64,000 nucleotides of DNA from Bryoerythrophyllum caledonicum (Eukaryota > Streptophyta > Bryopsida > Pottiales > Pottiaceae). Where the stretch lies: the NCBI GenBank assembly GCA_963971425.1, contig OZ020515.1, positions 38,297,198 through 38,361,197 on the forward strand, read 5' to 3'. Below are positions 6,775 to 62,442 of this stretch, one piece after another (within the stretch, counting starts at the first letter, position 1; every line of letters begins with the position of its first letter). Position numbers and translations under genes: made by a program. A model generated the notes under the pieces. It was not told the origin of the DNA. It searched no databases and saw only the letters and a list, made by a program, of their open reading frames with translations.

Positions 6775-6792
6775 GGTTACACCGGTGTAACC
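6775..6792. other. palindromic junction 1
   Basis: GGTTACACCGGTGTAACC is a perfect 18-bp palindrome just after the MASYIY frame and before the spliced segment of module A. About 60 bp on each side is also conserved with the other junctions ('ctggtta...ggttacac' upstream, 'ccatcctttgtaaatg.acg' type sequence downstream). Confidence 0.8.
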
Positions 6793-6975
6793 AACCGTTT
6801 GTAAATGGACGTAGTTTGGTCAGGAATGCCCGTAGCCATCGCGCCTCTCCACCCATCTCCTCTACGCCTTTCTGCCCTTCTCTTTCTTGCCTCTCTGCGC
6901 CTCTCCGCGCCTATATGCGCGTCTTCCCGCCGCTCCCACCTGCGCGTCTCCCTGCGCGATCTCTTTGGTTGTTGT

Positions 6976-7003
6976 TGGAAGTTGGAAGTTGGAAGTTGGA
7001 GGG
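6976..7003 (+). repeat. gaagttg short tandem repeat
   Basis: About three copies of a 7-bp unit near the start of the spliced segment. It recurs with different copy number at 17669, 36298, 38521 and 62627, always after a CT-rich, Ser/Leu/Arg-biased stretch of about 150 bp. Probably a fast-changing marker within the cassette. Confidence 0.7.
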
Positions 7004-7315
7004 GTGAGTGACGGGGATGATTCTCGCACGTCATCAGCGACTCAGCTCTGATTCCCAGAGCACAATCCGTGCACCTCCTCCACGGTTGGAGGCATTCAAG
7101 CGCAAATTCCCACTTCAATCTGTTAGGGTTGCACACTGCCCACTGCCCACACGAGCCTCTCCGTTCCGCTTCCCGCGAGCCTCCCCTACTGGCCATCGTC
7201 ATTGTCGTTGTTGCTTCCACCGTCCCGTCCGTCTCCCTCGCATGTTCTCCAATGCGCTTCCCCGCGCCTCCATGACCCTTCTCCTGCCCCCTCCGCTTCA
7301 GCGCCCGCTTTTGCC

Positions 7316-8895
7316 ATGGTGCCCACTGAGGTTGAAGCCCTCCATTGGGGCTGGCTCCAAATCAAAGAAGCCTATCAATTTTTTACAAAAAACCTTTTTT
7401 TGGTGTTGGATTTTTCCCTTGCAGTATGAGCTTGTGCAATTTGAAAGTCGGTGTGATGAGACTTGGCACGCTTTGGACTCAAAGACGTCTGAGACCGATG
7501 CTCAAGGGGGCACGTTTAGGATTTAGGAGCTCAGCTTCTGCAATCCAACAGCTTCTGCATATAGTTGGATCAAGGACTAGCTCTAGGGTTTGGACGAGGA
7601 AATGGCGCAACTCCAGGGTGATCAAGTTGCGCTTCAACTTCAGCTTGAATTGGATAGTGCCAATGTAAGAAGCTTCAGAATCTCCGAATTTCTTTGTGTT
7701 TTTTTGCCTAGGTTTTGTGTTTGGCTTGTGTCTGATTGATTTACGTATTGTTTCCAGATTAGGTTACATTCTTGCTCCTCGTTAATGCATGAGCACTTTT
7801 TGTGCCGCAGATAAGGGAGTGGGGGTGGCACAAATTCGAATGCAAAATATTGGTGAGGCTTAGGAGAGAAAGGCAGCAGTTTAGGGTCTGACCATGCATT
7901 TACTGCTGCGGATTTTCATGAGACGAAAGTTGCAAGCAGACCAGGTGAGCATGTCCGTTTTGTCTTTTTCGCCTTCTCGTGTATATTAGCTCGAGTTTCT
8001 CTTCGCTATGGTACCAGTGGATCGTACGTTGAGTTTCTCTACCTTTTGGTAGGTTTTGTCGAAGACTGCGGTTGATGATTATCAAAATTGTAAGGCTTTC
8101 CCCACACGTATCCTCCTTTAATTCAGTTTTGGCTTTGGGAAAATCTTGCATCATTCAAGATTCATGAATTCGTTGTTGTTCAAAGAGATTGTTCGCAAGC
8201 GGATCGATTCTTGTGGACTTACGCGGAGGCGGGGTTCATTAATCCGAAAACCTTTGTTGCGCTTGTCAAGGGAAGCTCATCCCTTTCTCTTTTGCACGTG
8301 TAATAAATGTTTATGTACTGGGAGTGGATTTTGCTATTTGAGGCTCAGAGGTGTGGGTAATGTGGTTGGGGTTCAGGTATTTCCAAGCTCGGCTAGGCAA
8401 TCGCATGACATGGTGTTTAGAGCAGCGGTGACAGTGACGGGGTCTATGACGGTTGAAGAAAAGTAGGGGTTGTGGCGGCATGGGAAGCTTAGAGGAGCGG
8501 TGGCGGAGAAGGAGTTGAGCAACGCAAGCTACTTGAACCAACCGCACATTTTGGAGATGGTGTTGCAAAAGCAGAGCGAAGAGCTGGCGAAGGTGCCGGA
8601 AACCGATGGGCAGAACAAGAGGACCATCATGCAGAAGGTTATCAACGCAAGCCTGAAGCTATTGGAAGAGAATTTGCGGCGGTTGCAGGAGATCGAGGAG
8701 CTTCAACAAAAGTATTTCGTGCTCACGAGTGGGAAGTTCTTCCATCTGGAGGAAGACAAGAACTATGGCAACAGTCCCAGCCCGAGGTGGAGACCCAGCC
8801 TCACGATCACTAACCGCACTCGGAGCGAGACCGAGGGATTGGAATACTCTGAGATGCCGTTGCTCACCACTGTCAGCTCCATAGGTGCGCATTAA
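7316..8895 (+). pseudogene. spliced segment of module A, copy 1 (captured gene?)
   Basis: Looks like a multi-exon gene. Visible pieces: MVPTEVEALHWGWLQIKEAY at 7316; an exon after an acceptor at 7424 (YELVQFESRCDETWHALD); an exon 7602-7664 (MAQLQGDQVALQLQLELDSA) ending at a GT donor; a piece after 7810 (GVGVAQIRMQNIGEA); and a last exon near 8467-8895 with strong heptads (ASLKLLEENLRRLQEIEELQ), ending in TAA. The LQLQLEL start recalls N-termini of plant RBR-type E3 ligases, but that is too weak to name it. Copy 1 has internal stops in the middle exons, so it is probably not functional. The same gene has a diverged relative in module C. Confidence 0.45.
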
Positions 8896-8912
8896 CTTAT
8901 AAATTATAGGAA

Positions 8913-9716
8913 CTAACTTAATGCCGAATGAACAAGGGTAAAAATTGCTTTCACTCAAATCTGTGGACTTGGCTCTAAAAAGTTTGTACTTACAAGGAGA
9001 AAAGCTAGTTGATGAATTTGCTACGCTTGTCAAAGAATCTCCCGTTTTTTTGGATGTCAATCATGGCTTTGTTTATGTGGCACAATATAGACGTTTGTTG
9101 ATGTTGCTGAAGGCGCAACATGAGATTTCATGTTTTGTTTTGAGCCTGAGCTAAGGTTTAGGGTTAGAAAGAGGTGTATTTAGGGTTAGAAGCTTGCTAG
9201 TTCTATGGTCTGAACTACCTCTCATGTGCTGAGGAATTTTGGATTTTGCTTGTGCAGGGGCTAGGATCCAGACCAGTTGCTACCTCGCTCTCCTTCAACA
9301 CAGAGATGCTCTGTGGTGGGACTTGAAGCGGGGCAAGGTGATTGGAAGTAGGGGAGCTCATACAAAGAAAGTAAAAACACACGGCATCCCAATAATGCAC
9401 TCTGAAAAGTGTGCTGGAATCGTCTTTAGCCAAACAAAATTTCATCGTAGCAAAATGTGCACATGGAGATTCCAATTCCCGTTGACTCCTCCTGGATCAT
9501 GTCGTCCTGACTCTAGTAACGCTCGACAGCGGCACCTGCAGTAGGTAATCCAGAAGGGGTAACTTATAGCGAGTGCGGTTGCGGTGCAGTGTATAGTACC
9601 GCACCAGGGCTGGCACAGGGCTCCGCATTGAAGGGGGTTGTCTCCCAAAACCTCATAGTTGCCGCGGCCATGGCCATGACCAGCATGCGAGTGCACCGAG
9701 CGTGCAGGCAAAGGCC
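8913..9716. other. unassigned spacer
   Basis: About 800 bp between module A and the NSUN remnant. Short open stretches exist (for example 8948-9154, a 69-residue frame without known relatives), but I see no supported gene. The MASYIY/coiled-coil repeat does not extend here. Confidence 0.3.
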
Positions 9717-12543
9717 ATGGCGGACGAGCTGTCAGCTGCGTTGCCGCCAACGTTTCTAGCATTTCTCAAGCAGAATGACCTCGATGCCTCCATCTATGAT
9801 GCCACAACCACCTTGCCCCTATACATCAGGTGCAATTCCCTCTACTTTCTGCTTCCATCACAACTTTTTTCTCACTCTCCTAAAATTGCGGGGATGTTGG
9901 CATTGGCATGTTGGTTTGTGGTTAGTGATGTCTAGTTATTGCAATAAGATATGGGCTTAGGTGTCTCTCGAAGTGTTGAAGGTAAACCCTAGCCGAATTT
10001 ATGCTGTGGACAGAGGAAAACCTCAAGCCAATTTGGAAATTTCCAGATTCGAAGAAGAGCTCGGACTGAAGCTCTCGCCCTTGACATGGCTTCCCAATTT
10101 CTTCAGCTTACCACCCAAGGCTCAGATTGCGGGCACCCATGCATACCAAGAAGGCAAGGTGACGTTTGAAGTTTCCTTTAGAATTGCGGGCGATGTTGTA
10201 GATCCGGAGTGCATGTACAATGGATGATGTCAAAAAATAAATTGGCCTATTGACGATGGGATTCTGTTCTTTGGGAATCAATTGTATGGGATGGATACAT
10301 CATCGGGTGTTGTTGTGGCAACTTTGGAGATATCGCTTGGCGATCACGTGCTCGATCTTTGTCCTACGCCCGGTGCGTGCCGGTCATTGAATGTCTGTTG
10401 CTTTCGTTGCAATGTCCTTCAATTATGTCTTTGTACATTTGGAGGCTATATTTTGGAGTGGTTGATTGCTTCAGATAATTCAGGTCGTGCGTTCAGAAGC
10501 TTCAGGGTTGACTGTGGTGGTGTGGCATGCGCCAAGTTGTGCATGATGGCCGAGTTATTGGGAAACTCGGGGCCATTAACTGCAGTGGATATTTCTTGAC
10601 CTTGTCTGGCTGCCTGTCGGACCATGCTGCAAAAGTACGATGTGCAAAAGTACGATCTTGGGAGACAAGCCCGCCTTTACCTAGCGGATGGAACGTCCTT
10701 CTCATTGCTTCCGTTGACTGGTGCAAGCACATTATGTTCGGCAAATGTTACTGATGGTCAATGCCATGACAAAAAATCTACCGATGCTGCTAGTAATAGT
10801 GATCGCCTTTATAAAGGTGCGTAGCAGTTTTGTAGTGAGCTCGTAGTGAGCCAAGTTACAACCTGACAACACTATTCTCACGCGAGTGTGGGCCTTCAGT
10901 TGATGTTCACATTTGTCAAAGTGCATGTTCGAGAAATCGTCATCAGCTTTTGATGGATTATTGAATGTCTGCAGTAAGTGACATAGGTTAAGCAATGTAA
11001 GCAGGATCACCCTGAGGATCTTGATGCGTGAAACTACAGCTGACCTCTTGATTACTATTTCATGCCATTGTTAAGATTTTGTATTATCTGCATGCTTTTT
11101 ATTTAGGCGACTTCCAGAAGAATGCAAGGATGGAGACAACATCGTTGTATGGGGAGTGGAAGTCAAGAAGAACATGACAAAAAAAGCGGGCGGCGAAAAG
11201 AGCCAAGTATCTCGGAATGCCTTTACAGATTGGGGAGGATGGGGTACTGGAGCTTTTCCTCTGTGGTGTTGATTCAGGAGTAGTAGGCATGAAAGTGGCC
11301 GATGTGGTGCAAACTTGCGGTGACTCCCAGAACATGTCTCTTTGCGGTTATGACAAGGTAATTACTCAGTGGTGCACCCACCTTGAAATCGATATCTCTT
11401 TGCTTCAGATCTCTTGAGGCGATCTTCACGTTGTGGCTGGTTTTATAGAAGTGTGGTTGCTATGTTGAGTCCTATTTGATGTACGTCAATATCCGCTCGT
11501 TCTTTATTTATTACGTTTGTATATGAATCTGTAGATTTTGTCAATGTTGCAGGATGTGTGACAGTCAGTGGACTGATTCCATCTTGTTTCTTTTTTAATA
11601 TTTTACCTGTGCGTGAGTAGGTGTTAGTGGATGCAGAATGCACTCATGATGGTTCATTGAAACACATCACCAAATACAAGCAATGGGGTTGGGAAACATT
11701 CGAGAGACGTTTCTTAAACAAAGATCGCATTGCTTCTATCACCTCTCTTCAGGTAAACACGAGTTTGGTAGCTTCTTGATACTCACGAAATTTTGGCATT
11801 GTAGAAGGCGCCTTGCACTTGATATTTTTGACTATGGTGAGATTTTATGAACCTAGCCCGTGCCATCTGCTTATGGTTTCTGGGAATCTAATTTCCATTT
11901 TGCAGACATATCGTCTGTACGTAGTGATTTTTTCTATTCATCGACCACTAAGAAAGGATCTCTAAGGCATGAAGTTGGGTAATTTTTATCACACCAATAT
12001 TTCACTATTCAACCAGTTGTGCATATCAATTCCTCATAAGATAACGCGTGTGTATCATGCAGGTGCATCTCTTGAGCAATGGATTTAGATCATTGAACCC
12101 TAGAGGCACACTTGTATACAGCACTTGCAGGTACATTGTTCGAGTCTCGTGCGCTTTGTTTATATTAGATTTGATGTGCTCTATTTTAGATTTTGTGCAT
12201 TCTAACCATGTTCATAGCAAATCGAAACTAGTTTACAAGTGGACAGTTTGATTTTCATTATGCCATTGATTATTGTCCCCAGCTTGATTGAGGAATTAGA
12301 TTGTATTCTGTCGCCCTCGCAAACTGTTTATACAGCTCGAATATTGTCAAGATTAGACTAGTGGTGAAGTGGTGGATTGTTGCTGCTTGTACTATGTCTT
12401 GTACATCTATAAATACACCATGTTTGTTCTTGAGCAACTTTACCAAGGACCAAAATGAAGGTGTGGTGGAGAGATTTCTTGCAACTCATGATAATGCACG
12501 TCCCTTAAACTTTGTGCTTAGAAGTAGTTACAGGGTTAAATAA
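9717..12543 (+). pseudogene. NSUN-type RNA (cytosine-5) methyltransferase, decayed
   Basis: Reads like the plant At5g66180 group of NOL1/NOP2/Sun m5C RNA methyltransferases, which use SAM. Exons by homology and splice sites: 9717-9829 (MADELSAALPPTFLAFLKQN), 9961-10158 (SPLTWLPNFFSLPPKAQIAG, AYQEGK), 10285-10372 (SAM motif I region HVLDLCPTPG), 10532-10815 (AKLCMMAELLGNSG; LYLADGTSFSLLP), 11107-11357, 11621-11752 (motif IV cysteine, VLVDAECTHDGS), 12063-12130 (motif VI cysteine, LVYSTC) and 12435-12543 (NEGVVERFLATHDN, then TAA). Decay is clear. There are in-frame TGA codons at 10597-10599 and 11175-11177. No AG acceptor is found before 10285, and the acceptor before 10532 is lost. A 15-bp tandem duplication near 10629-10660 doubles QKYD. 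Both catalytic cysteines remain. Most likely a pseudogene. Confidence 0.8.
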
Positions 12544-14910
12544 TGCTTTGAGTTTGTTGAGGGAGAGGGACAATTCAATTATAAATTATATGCTGTGAAA
12601 GTGTGTTGTGGATATATATGTGGTATCTTTGGTATTATTTATGGAAGTACTAATGTGAATGATTGGAATATTTCATAAAAGATTGTAATCTTATGGGATT
12701 TATAATTTAATAATATTTGTTGATTGGTGAGCAAAGATATGTAAGCAAACCGATTCATTTATATTATTTCATTATATTTACCATATGAGTTCTCCTAATT
12801 GAATATCCAATTGTCATTTTTGTAGTAATTGTATTTTATCCTCCCCAAGAGTTTCATGGTGTCTATCCCAATGAATAAAAAAAAAGCAAAAAATTGATAT
12901 TAGTCCCTTGATTATGACAAGGGGCTTGTTTTCAAATGATGGGTAGTTCCTAGAATGTAGCTCCGGCTTGGATTTCAGGCGGTTCCAGTCATTAGGGACC
13001 AATACGTGGCGAGCATGGCTGTGGTAGGAATGTGGTGGTTTGGCATAGCAGGTGAATCTGTATGGAGTGGATGTGCGCTAATTTTCATATTCAGAGTCAT
13101 TTGTAGATGAGTCGCGTGTGCTCATCCTGGCTACACTATGAGCCTCCAACATGTAATGTCACTAATGCGTTAGGCTGAATTCGCTCTCGGGAGAGCCATA
13201 CTCTTCGTAGCAAAGTTTTGGAGATGATCGTCCCTGAAAACGCCCGACGTGTACTGAAACGTCGCTGGAGTCAATTTTCCATGACCTGCAAAAACTTATT
13301 ATCTTTGCCCCTTGCTTCCACACAAAGAAGTTCAAGATATTATTAAAAAATGTTCACAAATACAAACAAAAGGAGGGACAACTCATAATGACCAACATGA
13401 CTAGACTTTAGCAGCCTCTGATTTTGAAAAATAATTATCCGAGATGCTCTACTTTTAGGAAGTCTCACCAAAATAGCAAACCCTCATATTATATCCGAGA
13501 TCATATCCGGTCTCAAGTCGTCGTAGTAGAGGCGTTGTTCACTCCTCGGATAGAGTTGTGTCCTCTTATGTTATGGAGATTGCTTCTAGTGAACATAGAG
13601 TTGCTTCTTTTTTTTTTGCGGTTGTTGGGTTTAGTTGGTTCTCTGTCAAGTCTTGGCTTTTGGTATTTCTCTTTTGAGTCTCGGTTAAGTCTAGGTTTCT
13701 GGTCTCCTTGTTTTGAGTCCCAGTTGTCAAACCATCAACTTGATGTGCAACAAGCAGGTCCAATGTTTGCAATTGTGAGAGTTGATTTGTGATTTAAGTT
13801 TTCATTTGTTTTCCTTCCAAAAATAAGGTCAGCGGGTTTGGTCACAAGTCAAGTTGTGTTGTTGAGAAACGGCGAGCTGTTGTGTATTGAGTCTCGGTTG
13901 TTGAGTCTCAGCACTTAATAGTGGTTTAAGGAAGCGGTATTGAGGGCTCTAAGAAATTAGTAGTTGGTCTTTTTCTCATGGCAATTCGATTAAAATTACG
14001 TTACACCAAATTCTAGATTTAGCAGTTAGTTGGACTTACAACCCCACAGGTGTCACCTTTAAGAAGCAAATATTTTTTGTTATGAATTTGACACAATTTA
14101 GATTTGGGTTGTTGCTCAGTTGGGCAGTAATATGAAGGGTAGCATTTGGGATTTTTTTTGCAAGTGGGAATAAATGGCTGGAAATCTATCATCTACTTCA
14201 ACGTTGGTTATAGTCTTGGTCAAGTCCCACCAAGGGAGTACATTCGAGATTGTGATCTGAGATCCCATGTGTCACGTGAATTTTCATTCATTTCCAGACC
14301 GGTGAGAGACTTCAAGGCATTATCAATACTCATGAACGATTTCTATGCTAAAAACCACATACCGCCAAGGCCTCTTATCCAGCGATGAGTATCAAGAGTG
14401 TGAGTGTCAAGAGTGCGGTATCCATGGATGCAAAGTGCACCGTAAGCCATCTTCCAAATCCAAATCCTTCAGAAAATGTGGAGTTTGGTGCAATGCCTCA
14501 ATGATTGCCGGCCTTGGCATACGCTTTCTAGTAGTGCCAACACATTCGCCAAAATTCAATTGGGACTCGATGGAGCAAAAACTACACATGTTGATGAGTG
14601 CAAAGCAAAAGAGAGAAAATTGATTGGCACATTTGGGCTTCCCGCCCCAACCGTGTTGTAAAACTTCGGTGTCCACATGAGCGGCTTAGCATCGACGCTT
14701 GGCTGCGCACCCAAACCCTCCTGTGCAAATCTTGGATTCCTCCGACCCTAGAATCACGTCCTTTTAGTTGAAGACAACCTCCTCCAACCCTTCATGGTCG
14801 CTCTACTTTGTGGCCCTCTAGCAGTTCGACTCTAGCACCTCCGAACATTGTGGATTTGGGGCTTCAATGCAATCCCAAATGGAAGTGGATGAACCTTCGC
14901 TGGCTAGCAA
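12544..14910. other. AT-rich region without a supported gene
   Basis: About 2.4 kb. Variants of 'gagtctcggtt' recur between 13674 and 13910. Frames such as 14146-14388 and 14345-14623 are short and unlike known families. A Cys-rich piece (ECECQECGIHGCKVH) near 14397-14450 has no context. I see nothing firm. Confidence 0.4.
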
Positions 14911-17430: not shown

Positions 17431-17473
17431 GGCAAACATGTAGCTAGTTACCTGGTTACACCTTCTACAAGGT

Positions 17474-17493
17474 GGGTTACATTGGTGTAACCC
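17474..17493. other. palindromic junction 2
   Basis: GGGTTACATTGGTGTAACCC, a 20-bp palindrome except at the central bases, in the same setting as junction 1: 'acctggttacacc' upstream and 'catcctctggaaatggacgt' downstream. Confidence 0.75.
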
Positions 17494-17988
17494 ATCCTCT
17501 GGAAATGGACGTAGTTTTGCACGAATGCATGCCATTGCCTCTCCGCCCCTCTCCTCTGCGCCTCTGCGCCTCTGCGCCCCTCCCATTGCGCCTTCTCCAC
17601 CCCTCTCCTTGCCCCTCTCTGCCCCGCTTTCATCTGCGCGTCTCCCTCCACGATCTCTTTTGCTGTTGTTGGAAGTTGGAAGTTGGAAGTTGGAGGGGGT
17701 GAGTGACGGGGATGATTCTCACCGGTCGCCAGCAACGCAGCTGTGATTCCAGGAGCACAGTCTGTGTTCGGAGGCATTCAAGCGCAAATTCGCCTTTGCC
17801 ACGGTTGCCAGGGCTGCCCACTGCCGTCGCCTTCGCCTGCTCTATTCCCCTTCTCGCCATGGCCACCGTCGTTGCCGATTCCAGCATCCCGTCCGTCTCC
17901 CTTGCGTGCTCTCCGATGCCCTTCCCTGCGCCTCCATGACCCTTCTCCCGCCCCCTCTGCACACGGCCTAGCAGCGCCCGCTTCAGCC

Positions 17989-24306: not shown

Positions 24307-26058
24307 ATGTCAAAGTTCTTGCGAGTAGATTTCAAGATACAACCATGGGGCTGCGCCAGGGTAGACGGTATGGATATGATTGCCAGCCTTAGTGTGGAGG
24401 AAGTGGATTCTCTTGGTGGAGGTATTAAAGATGTGGTGGCAGTGTCGCATGTCTGGGGTAATGCGAAATGCCTAGTGCAGAATGTGGAAGGTGCATCTCA
24501 TGGAATCAAGATAAGTAGCCGAGAGAAGATGGAGCGGATCTTGAACATTGCTAAAAGTAGAGGGTGGAAGAATTTGTGGCTGGACAACATTTGTATCAAC
24601 CAGGACGATCCCGCTGAGAGGTCGAGGGAAGTCATGAAAATGGGTTCTGTGTATCGGGACACCATAGCAACGTTGGTCTTGTTGGAGAGTACACACTCAA
24701 AGGCCCTGGCCTCGGCCATGGATATACTACTGCGTTTCCCCGGAGAAGTTGAATTGACATTACTCGATGAAGAAATGAGAGATGGTGGTTGGGAGAGGCT
24801 TTTCGAATTGTGCATAGAGTTGGGAGATGATAAGTGGTATGAGCGGCTATGGACGGTGCAAGAATGTGCATTAGCTTCGACGATATACATGGCCCCTGTT
24901 GACGGAGACATTGCTTACGATGTGTCTGGGTTCAGAAAGTGCGAGAGTATCTATTTTAAACTAAATGAATTTGCTGGTTATCTTATTAATAATTTGGATG
25001 CCGAGGGATGTCTTCGAATACGGATCTTAAATAATTTCATTCGTAGATGGGCATTTACCGGAGAAATGAGTATGTGGAAAGCCCTTAAAGCCACCGATTA
25101 TGCCAAATGCCATGTGGCAAAGGACAAGGTGTATGGTGTTCTTGGCCTTATTCCTAAAGTGAAGATCACTCCTGCATATGATGAGACATCTACTGAGGAG
25201 CTTGTTGTTACGATGATGAAGGAGTGCGTGAATAACCTCAAAGAAATGGATCTATTGCACATGCTTGGACCTAAGTTGAAGGAAATGGGGAAATGCATGG
25301 TGCCAACTTGGGAATGTTTTCAAAGACATATGATGACATTATGTGTTGGAGATATTATCCATACTGGCAATTGCACATATGATGAGAACAAAGGACTAAT
25401 GGTGTCCAATCCCTTTATCTTTGAAGCGAAAATTATTGCAGTGATAGAGCCAAAGCAATTGTCCGAAGCGCCTGGTGGATGGGTCCAGAGACATTATAGA
25501 TCATTGCACGAGAAATTGCATGATGATCAGATGGTTGAACTTTTAAGAGGACAACTGGTTGCTATTGACGATGAAATAAATCAGGGAGAAAACGAGTCCA
25601 AGGCTAGAGAATTACGCGAAGTATGGGCTCATCTTGCCTCATTACCTCCTGAGACTGTGATTACACATGTGCTCAAGGAAAAATATGGTTGGGGTCAGGA
25701 GCAACATAACCAATCTATGGCAGTATGGGGTATGAGCCTGTATCAAGATGAAAGGGCTTATATTATAGGCATCACGGAAGACAACGATTGCCCTGGCTTT
25801 TGTTGTGAACGTACTTACATCTCTGCATTTCAATCCAATGCAGCAGTTGAAGATGATTTGAGAGTAGAAGACACTTTGTTGGTTGTGGATTACTGGGGTT
25901 ATTTCCATAGTGGTGGGCATGTTCAATGGAGTAAATTACCTTTGATAGTAGCAAAGCAAATGCAAGAAGGGGTGAAGTTCATTTCAACAATTGTACTGGA
26001 CAGGGAATTACAATACGAGGCCAGAGCATCCCTAAGAGATGAGATAACTATCATGTAG
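24307..26058 (+). CDS. HET-domain protein, copy 1 (intact)
   Basis: A single open frame of 583 codons from ATG 24307 to TAG 26056-26058. The HET domain (PF06985 type) is plain: VVAVSHVWG near residues 43-51, LWLDNICINQDDPAERS at about 90-106, VMKMGSVYRDTIATLVLL and WYERLWTVQECALAS at about 178-192. In fungi this domain drives heterokaryon incompatibility and related cell-death responses. HET genes also occur in some mosses, where transfer from fungi has been proposed. No signal peptide or membrane span is seen. The C-terminal 350 residues have no domain I know. There is no intron in the frame. It is the only gene in the window that looks whole. A second copy lies at 56113-57867 with 11 differences in the first 115 residues. 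Confidence 0.92.
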   Translation: MSKFLRVDFKIQPWGCARVDGMDMIASLSVEEVDSLGGGIKDVVAVSHVWGNAKCLVQNVEGASHGIKISSREKMERILNIAKSRGWKNLWLDNICINQDDPAERSREVMKMGSVYRDTIATLVLLESTHSKALASAMDILLRFPGEVELTLLDEEMRDGGWERLFELCIELGDDKWYERLWTVQECALASTIYMAPVDGDIAYDVSGFRKCESIYFKLNEFAGYLINNLDAEGCLRIRILNNFIRRWAFTGEMSMWKALKATDYAKCHVAKDKVYGVLGLIPKVKITPAYDETSTEELVVTMMKECVNNLKEMDLLHMLGPKLKEMGKCMVPTWECFQRHMMTLCVGDIIHTGNCTYDENKGLMVSNPFIFEAKIIAVIEPKQLSEAPGGWVQRHYRSLHEKLHDDQMVELLRGQLVAIDDEINQGENESKARELREVWAHLASLPPETVITHVLKEKYGWGQEQHNQSMAVWGMSLYQDERAYIIGITEDNDCPGFCCERTYISAFQSNAAVEDDLRVEDTLLVVDYWGYFHSGGHVQWSKLPLIVAKQMQEGVKFISTIVLDRELQYEARASLRDEITIM

Positions 26059-32617: not shown

Positions 32618-32977
32618 ATCTGTGAGATATTGAGGGTTTGACTTGGCTTAAAATAGTTGACTATTATTTTTAAAATGATTATTTTTGAATTCTGATGATA
32701 CATACCCCCACTAATTTGATTGTTCTCAATTCAACTGTGTATTTACTTTTGACAAATTATGAAGTTGAAATTTTGACTCTGACTTAGACTTTTTAAACTC
32801 TTACATTTACTTTTGGGGGCACTTTTAGCTTTTACTTTTACTTTCATGAGTTTAGGGTTTACATGGGTGTCCTAGAGCATTTTGACTTTTTATTTTGGGG
32901 ATTTGATTGTACCTATAGGTAGCAGCTCCAGGAATGCAGGGCATGACTGGTTACCCGGTTACACTATCCTACACTGT

Positions 32978-32995
32978 GGTTACACCGATGTAACC
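32978..32995. other. palindromic junction 3
   Basis: GGTTACACCGATGTAACC, one change from the perfect palindrome. It precedes the foldback and MASYIY cassette of copy 2. Flanks match the other junctions ('gtagcag...aatgca...actggtta.c.ggttacac' and 'ccatcctttgtaaatg'). Confidence 0.78.
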
Positions 32996-33044
32996 CATCC
33001 TTTGTAAATGCACGTCAACTTTTGAGAATGCACGTTTTTATCTG

Positions 33045-33215
33045 CCCACGCTCCCGGCGTCAAAATGTGGATTCCGGGAGTATATATAAGTTTCTCATCC
33101 GACCAAGTGCGGATGAGTTATGAACGGATGAAGTTTTGGGGCCCAAAACTTCATCCGCTGATTGCTCATCTGTACGGCGTCGGATGATCAAGTGCCACAC
33201 CTTTCCGGAGAGCCC
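33045..33215. repeat. foldback with perfect 33-bp core palindrome
   Basis: 33125-33157 is cggatgaagttttggg, one base, then its exact complement. Weaker complementarity extends outward ('ctcatccgacc..' against '..cgtcggatgatc'), giving a possible hairpin of about 170 bp. A 'tatataag' box lies at 33081 in the left arm. The same structure is in copy 3 (core 59862-59894). Confidence 0.75.
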
Positions 33216-34363
33216 TTGCAATGCTCTACAGCGTAGAGGGGAGAATATTCGCAGCCCAGATGTCGAATCCAAGGGGCAGCATCTACGGGTGTCCGAGGTT
33301 TAGGCCTTGTGTAGGGTCCACTCAAGATAACGATACTTGGGGGTGGACCGGGGTTGATCCCATCAACCCTTTGGTTACAAAGCCTCCACTTGCACCATGT
33401 TTGTGAGACCAGGTTGAAGAGTTAGAAGGAAAAAAGTCACAAGAGGGGAGAAAGAGGAGAACTTGGGAGATATGAAGAGAAAGCAAGGCGCATGGAAAGC
33501 GAAAAGAGAAAGGAGAGGAGAGAAGAAGGAGCAAGACAAAAGGAGGGGAAGAAATGCAAGTGTAAAAGGAAAGAAATGGAGAGTTTAGGGTTTAGGGTTA
33601 CATGGGTATTCTAGAGGAAGTCGAATTTTTATTTTGGGATTTTGACTTGACCTACCCCCCATTTTTGGGGTCTACGAATCCAATGGTGGTGTTATTTTTC
33701 TTTACAAGTTTTTCATTTATGAGATATTGAGGGTTTGACTTGGCTTAAAATAGTTGACTATTTATGTAAAATGATTATTTTTGAATTTTGATGATACATA
33801 CCCCCACTAATTTGATTGTTTTGAATTCAACTGTGTATTTACTTTTGACAAAGTATGAATTTGAAATTTTGACTTTGACTTTGACTTTGACTTTGATTTT
33901 TTTAACTCTTACATTTACTTTTAGGGGCACTTTTAGCTCTTACTTTTACTTTCATGGGTTACATGGGTATTCTAGAGAAAGTTGAGGTTTTATTTTGGGA
34001 TTTTGACTAGACCTACCCCCCCCATTTTGGGGGTCTACGAATCTAATGGTGGTGTTATTTTTCTCTACAAAATTTTCATTTGTGAGATATTGAGGGTTTG
34101 ACTTGGCTTAAAATAATTGACTTTTTTGTAAACTGATAATTTTTGAATTTTGATTATACGTAACCCCACTAATTTGATTGTTGTGAATTGAATGGTGTAT
34201 TTACTTTTTACAAGTTATGAAGTTGAAATTTGACTTTGACTTTTATGTTTATATTTTTACTCTTACTCTTACTTTTATTTTTGCAATGATATTATAAAAA
34301 CATGTAAAGTAGAAACCTTAAAATATTTTATACATGATATTCTAGGATATTCTAAAATATATC

Positions 34364-36050
34364 ATGGCTTCATATATTTATAGGCAATGTGCGGAGCGTA
34401 GAAGATACACAGAAGAGGAGTTTGGAGAGCTTGAGGATATTGTATATAGACCACCTATTATTGATAGGAGAAATGAAGCGGACCATGTTGCACCAGAGGA
34501 TCCAGTGGCACCAAAGGATGGTGTACCGACGTTACATCTTTTTCCTTGTACTCCATTTGTTCAGGTGGATGTGGATGAGCCACTTGATGCATTTCCCGCA
34601 CTTGACGGATCGCGCAGTGATCTGGTTGCACATCCGGAGGCCAACAACCCGGATTTAATGGATTTAGATGCGGTGTGTTTCATGATGTTGACGAGGGATT
34701 TGCCTATTTTATTTGGGAGCATGGCACGTCCTGCAAACCGAAAGGTTCACGTGCAAGACCATATGGAGTTTGATGATTGGCTTCATGTCATCTCTGATCC
34801 TATTGTGGTGAGGTTTATGCTGGAGCAAATGAGCAGGAAAGGAATACATTTAAGAAAGACCTTGTGAATGTTTTACAACGGGATTTTGGCTTGGCGTTGA
34901 CTTGTAGCAGTGATAGTGTGTGTCTATCACGAAATCAGGTGAATATTCCTATTTCAGCCATGGCAGAGGCGCTATGTCATTTGGGTGCTCGAACATGTCC
35001 GGTTCAATTTTTTGGTATGAAGTGGGAGATCAAAGTTGTTGAGCCAATGGTTGATCGGTTTATTGATGGTTATCGAACAGAGATGGGAGCTACTGTTCCT
35101 CAAGGGATGAACAGATTTGACTATAGAGTTAGGTTTCCGGGAGACAAATTACAGCTCTTCAGATTCAGTGAGGCCCAAGTTCGAGCTAGGAGATCTCGAG
35201 AGCGTGAGGTGCATGAGATGTGTGGGGTGGAGGGGTTTGGGTCTTTGGAATTCAAGCCAATCGTGCACCAAGCTATAGTGAAGGTGAAGCTATATCAGAT
35301 ATTATGCCATGAGCTTCTATCTGTGATTCATAAGCAACAATTGGATGACATGCCCGGGACAGTCGCTACCATGCGCATCAGATTGCAGCAGATGCGGAAT
35401 TTATTGGCACGGTGGGAGGCGATGCCACGAGTATCACTTGCAGACCATATTTTTGGCATCACAGTTGAAGCCACTGTTGATACGGAGCGGGTGGTTGATG
35501 GATGTTGGTTGGTGAGCGAGTATGACCTCCTATGCATTGATGGTATTGAGCGCGTATTGGGAGGTTTATTCACTCGTATAGGGTGTACACTTGACATCTT
35601 TTCGAGAAGATGTCGGAGTAGATTTGATGATTTTGGAGCAGAAGTTCATGGAACTTATGCTCTTCCACCATCAGTTTGCCTTCAGAGCTCATTGACATTG
35701 GTTCGTCAAGCAATTGGTTGGAGTGGCAAGAACATGACGCGCCACCTCCGTGCAGCTAGAGCTTAAGAGATTGGAGAGCGTCGTCGATTGGAGATGGAAG
35801 CGGATGAGGGAGTTTTGTATGAGGAATGTATGCAGGACGATATCAATACCCGTATCTTGATTCTTGACTGTCTCGAGAATGCACGTTGGTTTGTGTTTAA
35901 TAAGATAACAGACCAAAATGTACCAGGTTTGATGCTCAAGGGGAGCAATGATAAGAGGTATTTGAAGAAGAATGGTGTATATGATAATCGAGTTGGTGCA
36001 GCTCGGCACTTTGTTAATCTATACGTAGCAGCGACGCGAATGCACTGCAT
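34364..36050 (+). pseudogene. MASYIY frame, copy 2
   Basis: Same unknown frame as at 5053, with the start ATG at 34364. Protein-level text is nearly the same as in copies 1 and 3 (DDWLHVISDP, LGARTCPVQFFGMKWEIKVV, DHIFGITVEATVDTERVVDG). The copy is broken by a few interruptions. Treated as an element fossil of unknown family. Confidence 0.55.
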
Positions 36051-36080
36051 TCCTGGTTATCTGGTTACACCTTTTACAAA

Positions 36081-36098
36081 ACGATATCAATACCCGTA
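36081..36098. other. junction 4, palindrome replaced by filler
   Basis: Where copies 1 and 3 have the GGTTACACCGGTGTAACC palindrome, copy 2 has acgatatcaatacccgta, identical to 35837-35854 within the MASYIY frame 244 bp upstream. The flanks ('ctggttacaccttttacaaa' before, 'accaaccctcttgtaaatag' after) are the normal junction flanks. Confidence 0.85.
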
Positions 36099-36630
36099 AC
36101 CAACCCTCTTGTAAATAGACGTAGTTTGGTTAGGAATGCACGTAGCCATCGCGCCTCTCCACCCATCTCCTATGCGCCTTTCCGCCCTTCTCTTTCTTGC
36201 CTCTCTGCGCCTCTCCGCGCCTATATGCGCGTCTCCGCGCCGCTCCCACCTGCGCGTCCCCCTGCGCGTCTCCCTGCGCGATCTCTTTTGTTGTTGTTGG
36301 AAGTTGGAAGTTGGAGGGATGAGTGACGGGGATGATTCTAGCACGTCATCAGCGACTCAGCTCAAATTCCAAGAGCACAGTCCGCGCACCTCCTCCATGG
36401 TTGGAGGCATTCAAGCGCAAATTCCTACTTCAATCTGATAGGGCTGCGCACTGCCCACTGCCCACACGAGCCTCTCCGTTTCGCTTACCGCGAGCCTCTC
36501 CTTCTGGCCATCGTCATTGTAGTTGTTGCTTCCACCGTCCCGTCCGTCTCCCTCGCGTGATCTCCGATGCGCTTCCCTGTGTCTCGACGACCCTTCTCCT
36601 GCCCCCTCCGCTTCAGCGCCCGCTTGTGCC

Positions 36631-38216: not shown

Positions 38217-38325
38217 ATGATTGTGCTCTACTTCTAGCTATAGAGAGATGCATTGACCATGAGCTTGAATCGAGCTGATATTGGCAAACATGTAGCTAGT
38301 TACCTGGTTACACCTTCTACAAGGT

Positions 38326-38345
38326 GGGTTACACCTGTGTAACCC
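38326..38345. other. palindromic junction 5
   Basis: GGGTTACACCTGTGTAACCC, a 20-bp near-palindrome with 'acctggttacacc' before it and 'catcctctggaaatggacg' after it. Confidence 0.75.
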
Positions 38346-38843
38346 ATCCTCTGGAAATGGACGTAGTTTTGCACGAATACATGCCATTGCCTCTCCGCCC
38401 CTCTCCTCTGCGCCTCTCTGCTTCTGCGCCCTTCCCATTCCGCCTTCTCCACCTTTCTCCTTGCCCCTCTCCGCCCCGCTCTCATGTGCGCGTCTCTCTC
38501 CACGATCTCTTTTGCTGTTGTTGGAAGTTGGAGGGGGTGAGTGACGGGGATGATTCTCACAGGTCGCCAACAACGCAATTGTGATTCCAAGAGCACAGTC
38601 TGTGGTCGAAGGCATTCAAGCGCAAATTCACCTTTGCCACAGTTGTCAGGGCTACGCACTGCCCTCGCCTTCGCCTGCTCTATTGCCCTTCCCGCGAGCC
38701 TGGCCTTCTCGCCATCGCCACCGTCGTTGCCGCTTCCAGCATTCTGTTCGTCTCCCTTGCGTACTCTCCGATGCCCTTCTTTGCGCCTCCATGACCCTTC
38801 TCTCGCCCCCTGAGCACACGGCCTAGCAGCGCGCGCTTCAGCC

Positions 38844-56112: not shown

Positions 56113-57867
56113 ATGTCAAAGTTCTTGCGAGTAGATTTCAAGATACAACCATGGGGCTGCGCCAGGGTAGAAGGTATCGATATGATTGCCAGCCTTAGTG
56201 TGGAGAATGTGGATTCTCTTGGTGGAGGTATTAAAGATGTGGTGGCAGTGTCGCATGTCTGGGGTGATGCGCAATGCCTAGTGGAGAATGTGAAAGGTGC
56301 ATCTCATGCAATCAAGATAAGTAGCCGAGAGAAGATGGAGCGGATCTTGAACATTGCTAAAAGTAGAGGGTGGGAAAATTTGTGGCTGGACAACATTTGT
56401 ATCAACCAGGAGGATCCCGATGAGAGGTCGAGGGAAGTCATGAAAATGGGTTCTGTGTAGCGGGACACCATAGCAACGTTGGTCTTGTTGGACAGTACAC
56501 ACTCAGAGATCCTGGCCTCGGCCATGGATATACTATTGCGTTTCCCCGGAGAGGTTGAATCGACATTACTCGATGAAGAAATGAGAGATGGTGGTTGGGA
56601 GAGGCTTCTCGAATTGTGCATAGAGTTTGGAGATGATAAGTGGTATGAGCGGCTATGGACGGTGCAAGAATGTGCATTAGCTTCGACGATATACATGGCC
56701 CCTGTTGACGGAGACATTGCTTACGATGTCTCTTGGTTCAGAAAGTGCAAGAGTATCTTTTTAAAACTAAATGAATTTGCTAGTAATCTTATTCATAGTT
56801 TGAATGACGACGGGTTGAATCGAATACGGATCATGCACAATTTCATTCGTAGATGGGTAGTTGATGCAGAAATGAGTATGTGGGGAGCCCTAGCAAACTC
56901 CCAATATGCCAAATGCAGTGTGGCAAAGGACAGGGTGTATGGTGTTCTTGGCCTTATTCCTAAAGTGAAGATCACTCTTGCATATGATGAGACCTCTACT
57001 GAGGAGCTTGTTGTTACGATGATGAAGGAGTGCGTGAATAACCTCAAAGAAATGGATCTATTGCACATGGTTGGACCTAAGTTGAAGGAAATGGGGAAAT
57101 GTATGGTGCCAACTTGGGAATGTTTTCAAAGACATATCGCAAAATTATGTCATGGAGGTATTATCCATTCTGGCTTTTGCACATATGATGAGAACAAAGG
57201 ACTAATGGTGTCCTATCCTTTTGTCTTTGAAGCAAAAATTATTGCAGTGATAGAGCCAAAGCAATTGTATGGAGCGCCTGGTGGTTGGTTCCAGAGACAT
57301 TATAGATCATTGCAGGAGAAATTGCATGATGATCAGATGGTTGAACTTTTAAGAGGACAACTGGTTGCTTGTGACTCTAAAGAAGTAAATCAGGGAGGAA
57401 AGGAGTCCAAGGCTAGAGAATTACTCGAAGTATGGGCTCATCTTGCTTCATTACCTCCTAAGACTGTGATTACACATGTTCTCAAGGAAAAATATGGTTG
57501 GGATAAGGAGCAACAAAACCAATCTATTGAAGTATGGAGGAGGAGCCTGTATAAAGATGATAGGACTTATATTATAGGCATCACGAAAGACAACAATTGC
57601 CCTGACTTATGTTGTGAACGTACTTACATCTCTGCATTTCAATCCAATGCAGCAGTTGAAGATGATTTGAGAGTAGAAGACACTTTGTTGGTTGTGGATT
57701 ACGGGGGTTATTTCCTTAGTGGTGAGCATGTTCAATGGAGTAAATTACCTTTGATAGTAGCAAATCCAACGCAAGAAGGGGTGAAGTTCATTTCAACAAT
57801 TGTACTGGACAAGGAATTACTACACGAGGCCAAAGCATCCCTAAGAGATGAGATAACTATCATGTAG
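56113..57867 (+). pseudogene. HET-domain protein, copy 2 (interrupted)
   Basis: Same gene as 24307-26058 with the same start and end. All HET motifs are readable (VVAVSHVWG, LWLDNICINQEDPDERS, WYERLWTVQECALAS), but the frame is interrupted once inside the HET domain, about a fifth of the way along. The rest stays open. Changes relative to copy 1 are spread along the gene, with one codon gained near residue 423 (ACDSKEVNQGG against AIDDEINQGE). The long open remainder suggests that the interruption is recent. Confidence 0.85.
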
Positions 57868-58027
57868 CTCGTCAAGTTTCTTCATTTTAGATTGACTTCA
57901 CCATAGATTGGTTTTGTCAGTAGTTTATGTTCATGGTAAGGTATTTGGTTCTTATTCTCAAAATATCATTGGATTGGATGCTTGGTTGTATAGTTCATAT
58001 GTGTATAGTTTTTGTCTTTGATGGGGC

Positions 58028-58587
58028 AAGGGATAAGATCCCTTGCTTGTGTCCTGGTGCAAGACCTTATCTCGTGGATAATTTGTTAGAGGATACCATG
58101 TTCTGGAAATATCCTATCATGGAGATACTTTATCTAGAGATATAGTATCATGTCTAGGTGGCATCATAGGTGATATGTTGACTTTAATAAGTGCATATTT
58201 GATTGTCTTTGTTCATGTAATGAGACAAGTTCTTTTATATAGGAGACAAGTTGACTTTGTTTTGTACATATTGGAGGTATAGATTTGATATTTGTGTATT
58301 AATATTACCAGTGATAATGCTGACAATAGGAATATTTTAATTGGACAACTTGTTAATTTGGCCTAATGTTCCAAATTCATGAGCTATGCATTTTTAGTGT
58401 GGTTGGTATGGAAAACGATGTGGAAAGTGGAATCTTAGGAAGAATTAGTTGGATGAACATCATGTTTTGGTCATCAACATAGGAGATAGCAGATAAATAG
58501 TAGTGATGTTTACAATTGTTTTAGATATGAAAATTGCAATTTATATGAACATTGTGGCATTTTAACTTCTATTATATTTTAATGGTT
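58028..58587. other. spacer between modules B and A
   Basis: 560 bp of AT-rich DNA without a gene. In the other B-A locus this place is taken by the TPR/kinase island. Confidence 0.6.
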
Positions 58588-59714
58588 TGGAACTTATTAT
58601 GATTGAAACTTTAACAAAACCTTCATGCATTAGAAAGGCATAGAGAATGCATGTAGCAATTCAAAGCCTTTCAAAAATGGAAATTTGACTTTAGCATAGG
58701 AATTTTCATCATCTCACAGGGCTTTAAGAGATCTTGTATGCACTATTTGGACTCCATCATCTTCGTGCAGGATACTTGTTCTCCTAAACAGTTTTAGCTA
58801 AAGACTTATCCATACTTCCTAGAAAACATGTATTTTTAGTGAAAATACTCAAATGGTTCCTTTAAGAATACAATAATTAATCATGGATGCAAATGTGAAC
58901 TTCAAAAGAAAATATATAGATATGAGAGAACAATTAATATTTTATGTTATATTAATAATTTGTGAATATGAAAAATATAGATAAAATAAGAATGTTGTCC
59001 AAGAATACAATAAGAACTTAATTAAAATTCAATAAAGATGAAGATGAAGGTTATGAAAGAGGATTATAGGTCCTCCAAAATTTGAAAGTCTTTCTATCTA
59101 GAGTCTGGTTTAGGGTTTGAATTAAGGGTTAAGGGTTAAAGGTTAAGAATTAAGGGCTAAGGGTTAAGGATTCAGGGCTAAGGGTTTAGGGTTAAGGGTT
59201 AAGGGTTAAGGGTTTAGGGTTTAGGGTTACATGGGTATTCTAGAGGAAGTTGAGTTTTTATTTTAGAATTTTGACTTGACCTACCCTCCATTATTGGGGT
59301 CTACGAATCCTGGGGCGCTGTTATTTTTCTCTACAAGTTTTTCAATTGTGAGATATTGAGGGTTTGACTTGGCTTAAAATAGTTGACTATTTTTGTAAAA
59401 TGATTATTTTTGAATTCTGATGATACATACCTCCACTAATTTGATTGTTCTGAATTCAACGGTGTATTTACTTTTGACAAATCATGAAGTTGAAATTTTG
59501 ACCTTGACTTTGACTTTGACTTTGATTTTTTAAACTCTTACAATTACTTTTAGGGGCACTTTTAGCTTTCACTTTTACTTTCATGACTTTAGGGTTTACA
59601 TGGGTGTCCTAGAGCATTTTGACTTTTTATTATGGGGATTTGATTGTATCTATAGGTAGCAGCTCCAGGAATGGAGTGCATTACTGGTTACCCGGTTACA
59701 CTATTCTACACTGT

Positions 59715-59732
59715 GGTTACACCGGTGTAACC
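59715..59732. other. palindromic junction 6a
   Basis: Perfect GGTTACACCGGTGTAACC before the foldback and MASYIY cassette of copy 3, equivalent to junction 3. Confidence 0.8.
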
Positions 59733-60697
59733 CATCGTTTGTAAATGCACGCCGACTTTTGATAAAGCACAGTTTTATCTGCCCACGCTCTCGGCGTCAA
59801 AATGTAGATTCCGGGAGTGTACATAAGTTTCTCATCCGACCCAGTGCGGATGAGTTATGCACGGATGAAGTTTTGGGGCCCAAAACTTCATCCGCTGATT
59901 TCTCATCTGTACGGCGTCGGATGATCAAGTGCCACATCTTTCCGGAGAGCCCTTGCAATGCTCTACAGCGTAGAGGGGAGAATATTTGCAGCCCAGATGT
60001 CGAATCCAAGGGGCAGCATCTACGGGTGTCCGAGGTTTAGGCCTTGTGTAGGGTCCACTCAAGATAACGATACTTGGGGGTGGACCGGGTTGATCCCATC
60101 AACCCTTTGGTTACAAAGCCTCCACTTGCACCATGTTTGTGAGACCAGGTTGAAGAGTTAGAAGGAAAAAAGTCACAAGAGGGGAGAAAGAGGAGAACTT
60201 GGGAGATATGAAGAGAAAGCAAGGCGCATGGAAAGCGAAAAGAGAAAGGAGAGGAGAGAAGAAGGAGCAAGACAAAAGGAGGGGAAGAAATGCAAGTATA
60301 AAAAGAAAGAAATGGAGAGTTTAGGGTTTCGGGTTACATGGGTATTCTAGAGGAAGTTGAGTTTTTATTTTGGGATTTTGACTTGACCTATCCCCCCATT
60401 TTTGGGGTCTACAAGTTTTTCATTTGTGAGATATTGAGGGTTTGACTTGGCTTAAAATAATTAACATTTTTTGTAAACTGATAATTTTTGAATTTTGATG
60501 ATACATACCCCTACTAATTTGATTGTTCTGAATTCAATGGTGTACTTACTTTTTACAAATTATGAAGTTGAAATTTTGACTTTGACTTTCATTTTTTTAC
60601 TTTTACTTTTATTTTTGCAATGATATTATAAAAACATACAAAGTAGAAACCTTAAAATATTTTATAGATGATATTCTGGGATATTCTAAAATATATC

Positions 60698-62390
60698 ATG
60701 GCTTCATATATTTATGGGCAATGTGCGGAGCATAGAAGATACACAGAGGAGGAGTTTAGAGAGCTTGAGGATATTGTATATAGACCACCTATTATTGATA
60801 GGAGAAATGAAGCAGACCTGGATGTTGTACTAGAGCATCTAGTGGCACCAGAGGATGGTGTACCGATTTTACGACATCTTTTTCCTCGTACTCCATTTGT
60901 TCAGGTGGATGTGGATGAGCCACTTGTTGCATTTCCTGCACTTAACGGACCGCGTAGTGATCTGGTTGCACATGCTTAGGCCAACAACCCGGATTTAATG
61001 GATTTAGATGCGGTGTGTTTCATGATGCTGACAAGGGATTTGCCTATTTTATTTGGGAGCATGGCACGTCCTGCAAACCGGAAGGTTCACGTGCGAGACC
61101 ATATGGAGTTTGATGATTGGCTTCATGTCATCTCTGATCCTATTGTGGTGAGGTTTATGCTGGAGCAAATGAGCAGGAAAGGAATACATTTAAGAAAGAC
61201 CTTGTGAATGTTTTACGACGGGATTTTGGCTTGGCGTTGACTTGTAGCAGTGATAGTGTGTGTCTATCACGAAATCAAGTGAATATTCCTATTTCAGCCA
61301 TGGCAGAGGCGCTATATCATTTGGGTGCTCGAACATGTCCGGTTCAATTTTTTGGTATGAAGTAGGAGATCAAAGTTGTTGAGCCAATGGTTGATCGGTT
61401 TATTGATGGTTATCAAACAGGGATGGGAGCTACTGTTCCTCAAGGGATGAACAAATTTGACTATGGAGTTAGGTTTACAGGAGATAGATTGCAGCTCTTC
61501 AGATTCAGTGAGGCCCAAGTTCGAACTAAGAGATTTCGAGAGGGTGAGGTGCCTGAGATGTGTGGGGTGGAGGGGTTTGGGTCTTTGGAATTCAAGCCAA
61601 TCGTGCACCAAGCTATAGTGAAGGTGAAGCTATATCAGATATTATGCCATGAGCTTCTATCTCTGATACAGAAGCAACAATTGGATGACATGCCCGGGAC
61701 AGTCGCTACCATGCGCATCAGATTGCAGCAGATGCGGAATTTATTGGCACGGTGGGAGGCGATGCCACGAGTATCACTTGCAGACCATATTTTTGGCATC
61801 ACAGTTGAAGCCACTGTTGATACGGAGCGGGTGGTTGATGGATGTTGGTTGGTGAGCGAGTATGACCTCCTATGCATTGATGGTATTGAGCGCGTATTGG
61901 GAGGTTTATTCACTCGTATAGGGTGTACACTTGACATCTTTTCGAGAAGATGTCGGAGTAGATTTGATGATTTTGGAGCAGAAGTTCATGGAACTTATGC
62001 TCTTCCACCATCAGTTTGCCTTCAGAGCTCATTGACATTGGTTCGTCAAGCAATTGGTTGGAGTGGCAAGAACATGACGCGCCACCTCCGTGCAGCTAGA
62101 GCTTAAGAGATTGGAGAGCGTCGTCGATTGGAGATGGAAGCGGATGAGGGAGTTTTGTATGAGGAATGTATGCAGGACGATATCAATACCCGTATCTTGA
62201 TTCTTGACTGTCTCGAGAATGCACGTTGGTTTGTGTTTAATAAGATAACAGACCAAAATGTACCAGGTTTGATGCTCAAGGGGAGCAATGATAAGAGGTA
62301 TTTGAAGAAGAATGGTGTATATGATAATCGAGTTGGTGCAGCTCGGCACTTTGTTAATCTATACGTAGCAGGGACGCGAATGCACTGCAT
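60698..62390 (+). pseudogene. MASYIY frame, copy 3
   Basis: Third copy of the unknown frame, start ATG at 60698 (MASYIYGQCAEHRRYTEEEF). Broken by a few interruptions, more than copy 2. From about 61680 to 62390 it is almost identical to copy 2, closer than the 5' half, which suggests exchange between copies. Element fossil of unknown family. Confidence 0.55.
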
Positions 62391-62424
62391 TCTTGGTTAT
62401 CTGGTTACACCTTTTACAAAGGGG

Positions 62425-62442
62425 GGTTACACCGGTGTAACC
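62425..62442. other. palindromic junction 6b
   Basis: Perfect GGTTACACCGGTGTAACC between the MASYIY frame and the spliced segment of copy 3, equivalent to junction 1. Confidence 0.8.

What the first reader, a model, noticed from the sequence alone, without database searches (positions are those of the whole stretch)
6775..62442. One palindromic junction marks cassette edges at six sites
GGGTTACACCGGTGTAACCC, or a form differing by one or two bases, occurs at 6775, 17474, 32978, 38326, 59715 and 62425. A seventh equivalent place at 36081 has normal flanks but a replaced core. About 60 bp on the left (ending 'ctggtta.c.ggttacac') and 30 bp on the right ('catcctttgtaaatg.acg') are conserved too. 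The junctions sit before the MASYIY cassette, between it and the spliced segment, and before module C. In copy 2 this gives three cassettes in a row (from 32978, 36081 and 38326). The pattern resembles units joined at a shared site, as recombination sites or transposon ends would be. No eukaryotic system with this layout is known to me.
Basis: partly seen in the sequence, partly recalled or inferred. Interest (0 to 1): 0.75.

Follow-up and report, generated by a model that had tools for sequence, protein, structure and literature searches.

The report
Subtelomeric palindrome in a triplicated locus
The repeated palindrome is a diverged member of a repeat family found mostly near chromosome ends, carried along inside a stretch of plant-like DNA copied three times in a row; it is not a site for swapping cassettes, although one copy shows the scar of a DNA break repaired at the palindrome's centre.

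Summary
The six palindromes are real (none in 100 shuffles; four coordinates one base high). They form three types in one fixed order, A – MASYIY – B – C, in three tandem units. Unit 1 looks different only because an LTR retrotransposon (5-bp target duplication) split its A from MASYIY; the three-in-a-row look of unit 2 comes from about 8.5 kb missing relative to unit 1. For recent duplications (at least 85% identity and 1 kb), 0 of 10 elements lie within 50 bp of a breakpoint.

The palindrome is the core of a 77–97-bp quasi-palindrome bounded by CGTGCATTC…GAATGCA. A pattern for those ends matches the genome 59 + 52 times (reversed control 0); on the 65-Mb contig C1, 31 of 33 listed rows lie within 1.6 Mb of an end. 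So the window's elements look like diverged subtelomeric repeat modules.

One new finding: the replaced core at 36081 is an 18-nt copy from 244 bp upstream, and a unit 2–unit 3 conversion tract (35375–36077) stops there, the signature of a break at the palindrome. A second tract does not touch an element. Known kinds throughout; modest interest.

The parts
32897..33036 (+). Element A2 (palindrome 32977-32996), unit 2; left flank is a telomere-associated repeat
59634..59773 (+). Element A3 (palindrome 59714-59733), unit 3
6694..6833 (+). Element B1 (palindrome 6774-6793), unit 1; by eye its left arm supplies the end of the MASYIY-related ORF 6082-6729
36001..36139 (+). Element B2, unit 2; palindrome core replaced by an 18-nt copy at 36081-36098
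35837..35854 (+). Template of the 18-nt insert in B2, 244 bp upstream; also present at 6527 and 62177
35375..36077 (.). Gene-conversion tract: units 2 and 3 agree against unit 1 at 35 of 37 informative sites; ends at the B2 core
33264..33549 (.). Second unit 2-unit 3 conversion tract; not at an element
62344..62483 (+). Element B3 (palindrome 62424-62443), unit 3; strongest hairpin of the 7 folded (z -5.05)
17434..17533 (+). Element C1 (palindrome 17474-17493), unit 1
38286..38385 (+). Element C2 (palindrome 38326-38345), unit 2; breakpoint of the 8.5-kb difference at about 38218, 108 bp to the left of the palindrome
33088..33234 (.). Palindromic repeat right of A2; a related stretch lies at the matching side of the C1 and C7 subtelomeric-type elements
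5053..6729 (+). MASYIY copy 1, interrupted frame (ORFs 5053-5874 and 6082-6729)
34364..35766 (+). MASYIY copy 2, interrupted frame (ORFs 34364-34867 and 34864-35766)
60698..62106 (+). MASYIY copy 3, interrupted frame (TAG inside)
3321..3589 (+). 3' LTR end of the retrotransposon that split element A1 (off-window) from MASYIY copy 1; 5-bp target duplication GATCC
6840..8901 (+). B module: decayed gene fragment, 5' part related to C6:149086, 3' part to C11:19541481
24307..26058 (+). HET-domain (PF06985) gene of unit 2, open 583-aa frame

Best explanation
The sites are diverged members of a family of short quasi-palindromic modules (77-97 bp between CGTGCATTC and GAATGCA ends) that is common near contig ends (shown). 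Together with a telomere-associated repeat and MASYIY-type genes, such modules ended up in an interior segment of contig C2 beside a HET gene (inferred). There the element stood at three positions (A, B, C), and the segment was then tandemly triplicated and decayed, so the sites are internal parts of a long repeat (shown). The family is probably MITE-like in origin, because its ends are inverted repeats and it lies in unlike surroundings (inferred). It has no cassette-joining role. It can be a weak point: in unit 2 the palindrome of B2 broke, about 700 bp on one side was copied between units 2 and 3, and the ends were closed with an 18-nt patch from 244 bp upstream (tract and patch shown; order of steps inferred).
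For: Fixed order in three units. Unit 1's A is separated from MASYIY by an LTR element (ends 95.5% alike over 269 bp, target duplication GATCC; empty site in units 2 and 3). Recent breakpoints: 0 of 10 elements within 50 bp. Family: pattern CGTGCATTCN{55,85}GAATGCA, 59 forward and 52 reverse matches, reversed control 0 (pattern built from B and the C7 locus, so B2 and B3 match by construction). A subtelomeric copy from C1 scores 38 against B1 and B3 and 45 against D (best of 500 shuffles 26, 26, 25) and 29 against A3 (24). A 326-bp piece from C7 has 41 near full-length places, 85-100% alike, many at contig ends. 18-nt patch. 29 informative sites in a row with unit 2 = unit 3, longest run in 20000 permutations 13. 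B3 and B1 fold as long hairpins (z -5.05, -3.54), B2 does not (-0.07).
Against: The C1 copy does not score above shuffles against A2 (22 against 26), window C1 (17 against 23) or window C2 (21 against 24); these link to the family only through B. No target duplication of the element was read, so MITE origin is unproven. The palindrome arms vary little within types (1 of 48 columns), which may mean constraint. Only one break-repair event is seen among the ten cluster elements, and one of the two tracts does not end at an element.
Confidence: 0.75

Rival explanations
1. The element is a promoter or enhancer module (GTTACAC boxes, two direct and one inverted) kept by selection upstream of co-regulated subtelomeric-type genes.
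For: By eye it stands just upstream of the CT-rich leader of the B and C modules and about 100 bp upstream of a TATA-like box in A. GTTACAC columns are almost invariant in 13 aligned copies while mean column identity is 72% (D copies were found through the palindrome, so part of this is selection by search). At C7 a related element lies about 150 bp upstream of an open MASYIY homologue, in the opposite orientation.
Against: All three window MASYIY copies are interrupted and B/C look decayed by eye. The related gene at C6:149086 shows no element in the fetched sequence. The whole element is not slower than its flanks in A (322 of 360 identical against 910 of 958) or B, though slightly slower in C (348 of 360 against 2474 of 2624). 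B2 lost the core. In D the longest of the stop-to-stop frames of 100 or more codons in 7 kb was 146 codons (no family search made).
Confidence: 0.12
2. The element is a site-specific recombination or cassette-joining site.
For: B/C homology starts at the element's left end; unlike blocks flank it in A and B.
Against: One fixed order in 3 of 3 units; recent breakpoints not at elements; unit 2's jump lies about 108 bp away; among 10 window ORFs put to Pfam the only hit was HET, so no recombinase was recognised there.
Confidence: 0.05
3. The element is an end (TIR or LTR) of a larger gene-capturing transposon, which would explain the chimeric gene fragments of module B.
For: Module B joins pieces related to two unlinked genes.
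Against: All cluster copies face the same way, so they are not a TIR pair; the ends CGTGCATTC and GAATGCA lie within 55-85 bp of each other, which fits a self-contained short element; 6 of 7 fetched MASYIY-homologue loci (L038-L043) have no element match at E 0.01.
Confidence: 0.08

Closest known systems
Subtelomeric (telomere-associated) repeats
   Same: Related modules near contig ends, tandem period 3358 bp at the start of C1 (exact over the 1642 bases compared), near CCCTAAA repeats
   Different: The window block lies about 2 Mb from the end of C2 and is diverged
Short palindromic MITE-like repeats
   Same: 77-97 bp, inverted ends, hairpin-forming in B1 and B3, many places
   Different: No target duplication read; strong bias to contig ends; part of longer tandem units
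Tandem segmental duplication with gene conversion
   Same: Three units about 92-97% alike in one order; two conversion tracts
   Different: Nothing essential
Quasi-palindrome fragility and template-switch repair (yeast and E. coli work such as PMC3855049 and PMC7202029: search listing and start of abstract only)
   Same: Palindrome lost and replaced by a short copy of nearby sequence, conversion tract ending there
   Different: One natural event in a plant-like genome, inferred from sequence

Membership tests
Tandem segmental duplication | Long blocks of high identity in the same order and orientation | tested here: met
Site-specific recombination cassette array | Cassettes in varying order, joined exactly at the site | tested here: not met
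   one order in 3 of 3 units; 0 of 10 elements within 50 bp of recent breakpoints
Site-specific recombination cassette array | A recombinase gene nearby | tested here: inconclusive
   10 window ORFs scanned with Pfam, only HET found; introns and small ORFs not covered
DNA transposon ends (TIR pair around a unit) | Two inverted copies bounding one unit | tested here: not met
   the 10 cluster elements have the same orientation
MITE | Many dispersed copies | tested here: met
   59 + 52 pattern matches, reversed control 0; some listed rows do not look like the family by eye
MITE | Terminal inverted repeats | tested here: met
   CGTGCATTC...GAATGCA; clear in B and the C1 and C7 copies, weak in window C and D
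MITE | Target site duplication at independent insertions | tested here: inconclusive
   flanks of A and B lie in different blocks; no empty site of the element found
Subtelomeric repeat | Concentration near chromosome ends | tested here: met
   31 of 33 listed C1 rows within 1.6 Mb of an end of the 65.2-Mb contig; list cut, contigs may not all end in telomeres
Conserved promoter element | Slower change than neighbouring DNA | tested here: inconclusive
   whole element not slower in A or B, slightly slower in C; arms 1 of 48 columns variable
Palindrome-associated break repair | Palindrome deleted with templated filler and adjoining conversion tract | tested here: met
   one case, B2

The most novel reading that the evidence does not exclude
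The subtelomeric quasi-palindrome family is a standing set of break hotspots that starts gene conversion and duplication, and so helps to homogenise and spread gene blocks (MASYIY-type and HET genes) at and away from the chromosome ends of this plant-like genome.
Probability: 0.12. Interest if true: 0.5.

Novelty: new member of a known kind. Interest (0 to 1): 0.3.

Why it matters
It removes a candidate for an unknown eukaryotic cassette system and ties the palindrome to a repeat family near chromosome ends. It also gives a clean natural example of palindrome breakage repaired by copying between tandem units plus a templated patch, which can be compared across individuals to ask whether short quasi-palindromes drive change in subtelomeric gene blocks.

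Tried and rejected
My own first reading, that the element is low-copy with only one relative (D), was wrong: strict palindrome searches miss diverged copies, and the end-motif pattern found the family. A model of the element (R1) could not be run on this genome. The gapped pattern gave 34 matches, fewer than its reversed control (66); of these only the cluster and D rows look like the element, and flanks of the others were not read. Rfam: 0 matches at the gathering score in the window. Pfam on two MASYIY homologues: 0 families for one, one chance-level match (E 0.34) for the other. The organism was not identified: rbcL matches plant-type Rubisco chains in the PDB, 9chz first (the table names no organisms, the plant label is recalled). 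Literature: GTTACACC as a whole word, 0 papers; HET domain with moss, 2 papers, not on point by listing; repair searches gave 5, 2 and 23 papers, seen only as listings and abstract starts; no paper was opened. The idea that unit 1 lacks an A site was rejected.
Full report
Observation. The palindrome was found 6 times in the window with up to 3 mismatches, against none in 100 shuffles. The flanks and the replaced core at 36081 are as described. Four of six start coordinates are one base high.

Close copies. The window is C2:38297198-38361197 of a 437-Mb genome in 894 contigs; CCCTAAA arrays and rbcL suggest a plant-type organism, species unknown. With up to 2 mismatches there are 8 places, all in C2:38271377-38375375. 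A 161-bp query adds the replaced-core place, 9 sites; a query from A adds a diverged tenth, A', at window coordinate 82583. The 16-base core with up to 1 mismatch gives 17 forward places (reversed control 7): 7 in the cluster and 10 others, type D, four at C2:2.47-3.24 Mb and six on small contigs, 97-100% alike. Outside the palindrome, D1 scores 43 and 44 against B1 and B3 (best of 300 shuffles 26 and 22) and beats its best shuffle for A1, A2, C1, C2 and C3, but not for A3 (18 against 22) or A' (24 against 26).

The wider family. A check of fetched loci showed that L044 (C7, upstream of an open MASYIY homologue) holds an 18-base exact match to the arm of B3 inside a related quasi-palindrome with another core. 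A pattern for the shared ends, CGTGCATTCN{55,85}GAATGCA, gives 59 forward and 52 reverse matches, reversed control 0 (list cut; B2 and B3 match by construction; some rows, for example on C6, C47 and at C12:14.06 Mb, do not look like the family by eye). By eye, two main core classes appear, one with ACACCGGTGT as in the window and one with GGCCC arms. Of 33 listed C1 rows, 31 lie within 1.6 Mb of an end of that 65.2-Mb contig and 21 within 0.5 Mb; overlapping rows are counted apart. At C1:1501-6500 the unit repeats exactly with period 3358 over the 1642 bases compared. The first-class C1 copy scores 38 against B1 and B3, 45 against D and 29 against A3 (best of 500 shuffles 26, 26, 25, 24), but not above shuffles against A2, window C1 or window C2; the second-class copy exceeds shuffles for B1, B3 and, barely, D. 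The C1 unit also holds, in the reverse orientation, stretches like the sequence right of A (33088-33204) and like the telomere-associated repeat at 33580-33699. A 326-bp piece of C7 has 41 near full-length places, 85-100% alike including itself (40 of 123 candidates scored).

Fixed order. Self-comparison of 184 kb shows segmental duplications, mostly 92-97% alike. Types A (-25820, 32977, 59714), B (6774, 36081, 62424) and C (17474, 38326, 78159) form three units in the same order. Unit 1 seemed to lack A: A1 lies 29 kb away because an LTR retrotransposon inserted at GATCC; its ends at -25426 and 3589 match over 269 bp at 95.5%, and units 2 and 3 show the empty site. I did not dissect the 29 kb. 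Unit 2 jumps from the equivalent of 8901 to that of 17368. Five HET places lie at -29268, 24436, 56242, 88752 and 107395; none of the elements found lies to the right of the last two, and A' lies 6 kb left of the fourth.

Breakpoints. With alignments of at least 1 kb and 85% identity (71 breakpoints), 0 of 10 elements lie within 50 bp (circular-shift mean 0.39), 3 of 10 within 120 bp (p 0.053, the same C breakpoint) and 6 of 10 within 400 bp (p 0.028). With 70% identity and 1 kb (88 breakpoints), 6 of 10 lie within 50 bp (p 0.0006); with 60% and 300 bp (154 breakpoints), 6 of 10 within 50 bp (p 0.0008) and 9 of 10 within 120 bp (p 0.0012). These are older matches: the B/C shared block begins at the element, and short A matches end near it. 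So the element marks old edges, as a repeat or the start of a shared module would, but not recent ones.

Modules. MASYIY has 44 matches in the genome. In the two loci printed in full (L038 at C11:1-3688, L039 at C12:890-4588) it lies beside CCCTAAA arrays. The three window copies have interrupted frames. Module B joins stretches related to C6:149086 (71%) and C11:19541481 (76-77%). By eye the B and C frames are decayed.

Constraint. Between copies of one type, the 120-bp element is 87.5-90.8% identical in A (right flank 93.0-97.3%; left flank 94.3% for the one pair that aligned well), 90.0% in B (flanks 92.9 and 95.5%) and 96.7% in C (right flank 93.5-95.9%). Variable columns: palindrome arms 1 of 48, core 4 of 12, B2 left out.

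The B2 scar. B2's core holds ACGATATCAATACCCGTA, identical to 35837-35854, 244 bp upstream. Among informative sites of units 1-3, 29 in a row from 35375 to 35990 have unit 2 = unit 3 (longest run in 20000 permutations 13); from 35375 to 36077 it is 35 of 37, the exceptions being 36032 and 36053. The run stops at the replaced core (36081); beyond it patterns are mixed. In the same call the longest run of unit 1 = unit 3 (16) is the replaced core itself, and a run of 8 with unit 1 = unit 2 has p 0.011. Donor and recipient cannot be told apart. A second tract, 33264-33549 (14 sites, 0 of 2000 permutations), does not touch an element; none stood out in the HET, right-B and C stretches tested. Of 7 elements folded as single-stranded DNA, B3 and B1 form long hairpins (z -5.05, -3.54); C1 -2.57, A3 -2.39, C2 -1.66, A2 -1.07, and B2 -0.07. 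Break, copying from the sister unit and closure with a templated patch is the simplest reading; template switching at a replicating hairpin is an equal alternative.

Verdict. A tandem triplication that carries diverged members of a subtelomere-biased quasi-palindromic repeat family, with one instructive repair scar. The cassette-site reading fails on order and on recent breakpoints.

Noticed in passing
L038 (C11:1-3688), L039-L043 (C12:890-15752), C10:4233-34662: MASYIY homologues with open frames (577 aa on C11, 538 on C12, 373 on C10) lie in tandem near contig starts: 2791 bp apart on C12, about 4.2 kb in 6 of 7 steps on C10. CCCTAAA arrays beside them were read in L038 and L039 only. No Pfam family at the curated cut-off for the C11 and C7 homologues scanned.
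   Followed up: partly
window 33091-33234: A palindromic repeat just right of A with 33 places outside the cluster, many matched in both orientations (40 of 124 candidates scored).
   Followed up: partly
C1:2002-9365; C886:31774-38792: Tandem subtelomeric-type units 3358 bp apart carry two classes of quasi-palindrome about 550 bp apart.
   Followed up: partly
genome-wide; window 24307-26058: 74 places match the HET domain (PF06985), many clustered on C1 (7.0-7.5 Mb), C4 (1.3-2.3 Mb) and this C2 stretch: an expanded family in a plant-like genome.
   Followed up: no
C821, C590, C894: Three rbcL places; the two translated (C821, C894) differ in protein sequence: possible contamination or divergent plastid copies.
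   Followed up: no
window 6840-8901: Module B is a chimera of fragments related to two unlinked genes (C6:149086 and C11:19541481).
   Followed up: partly
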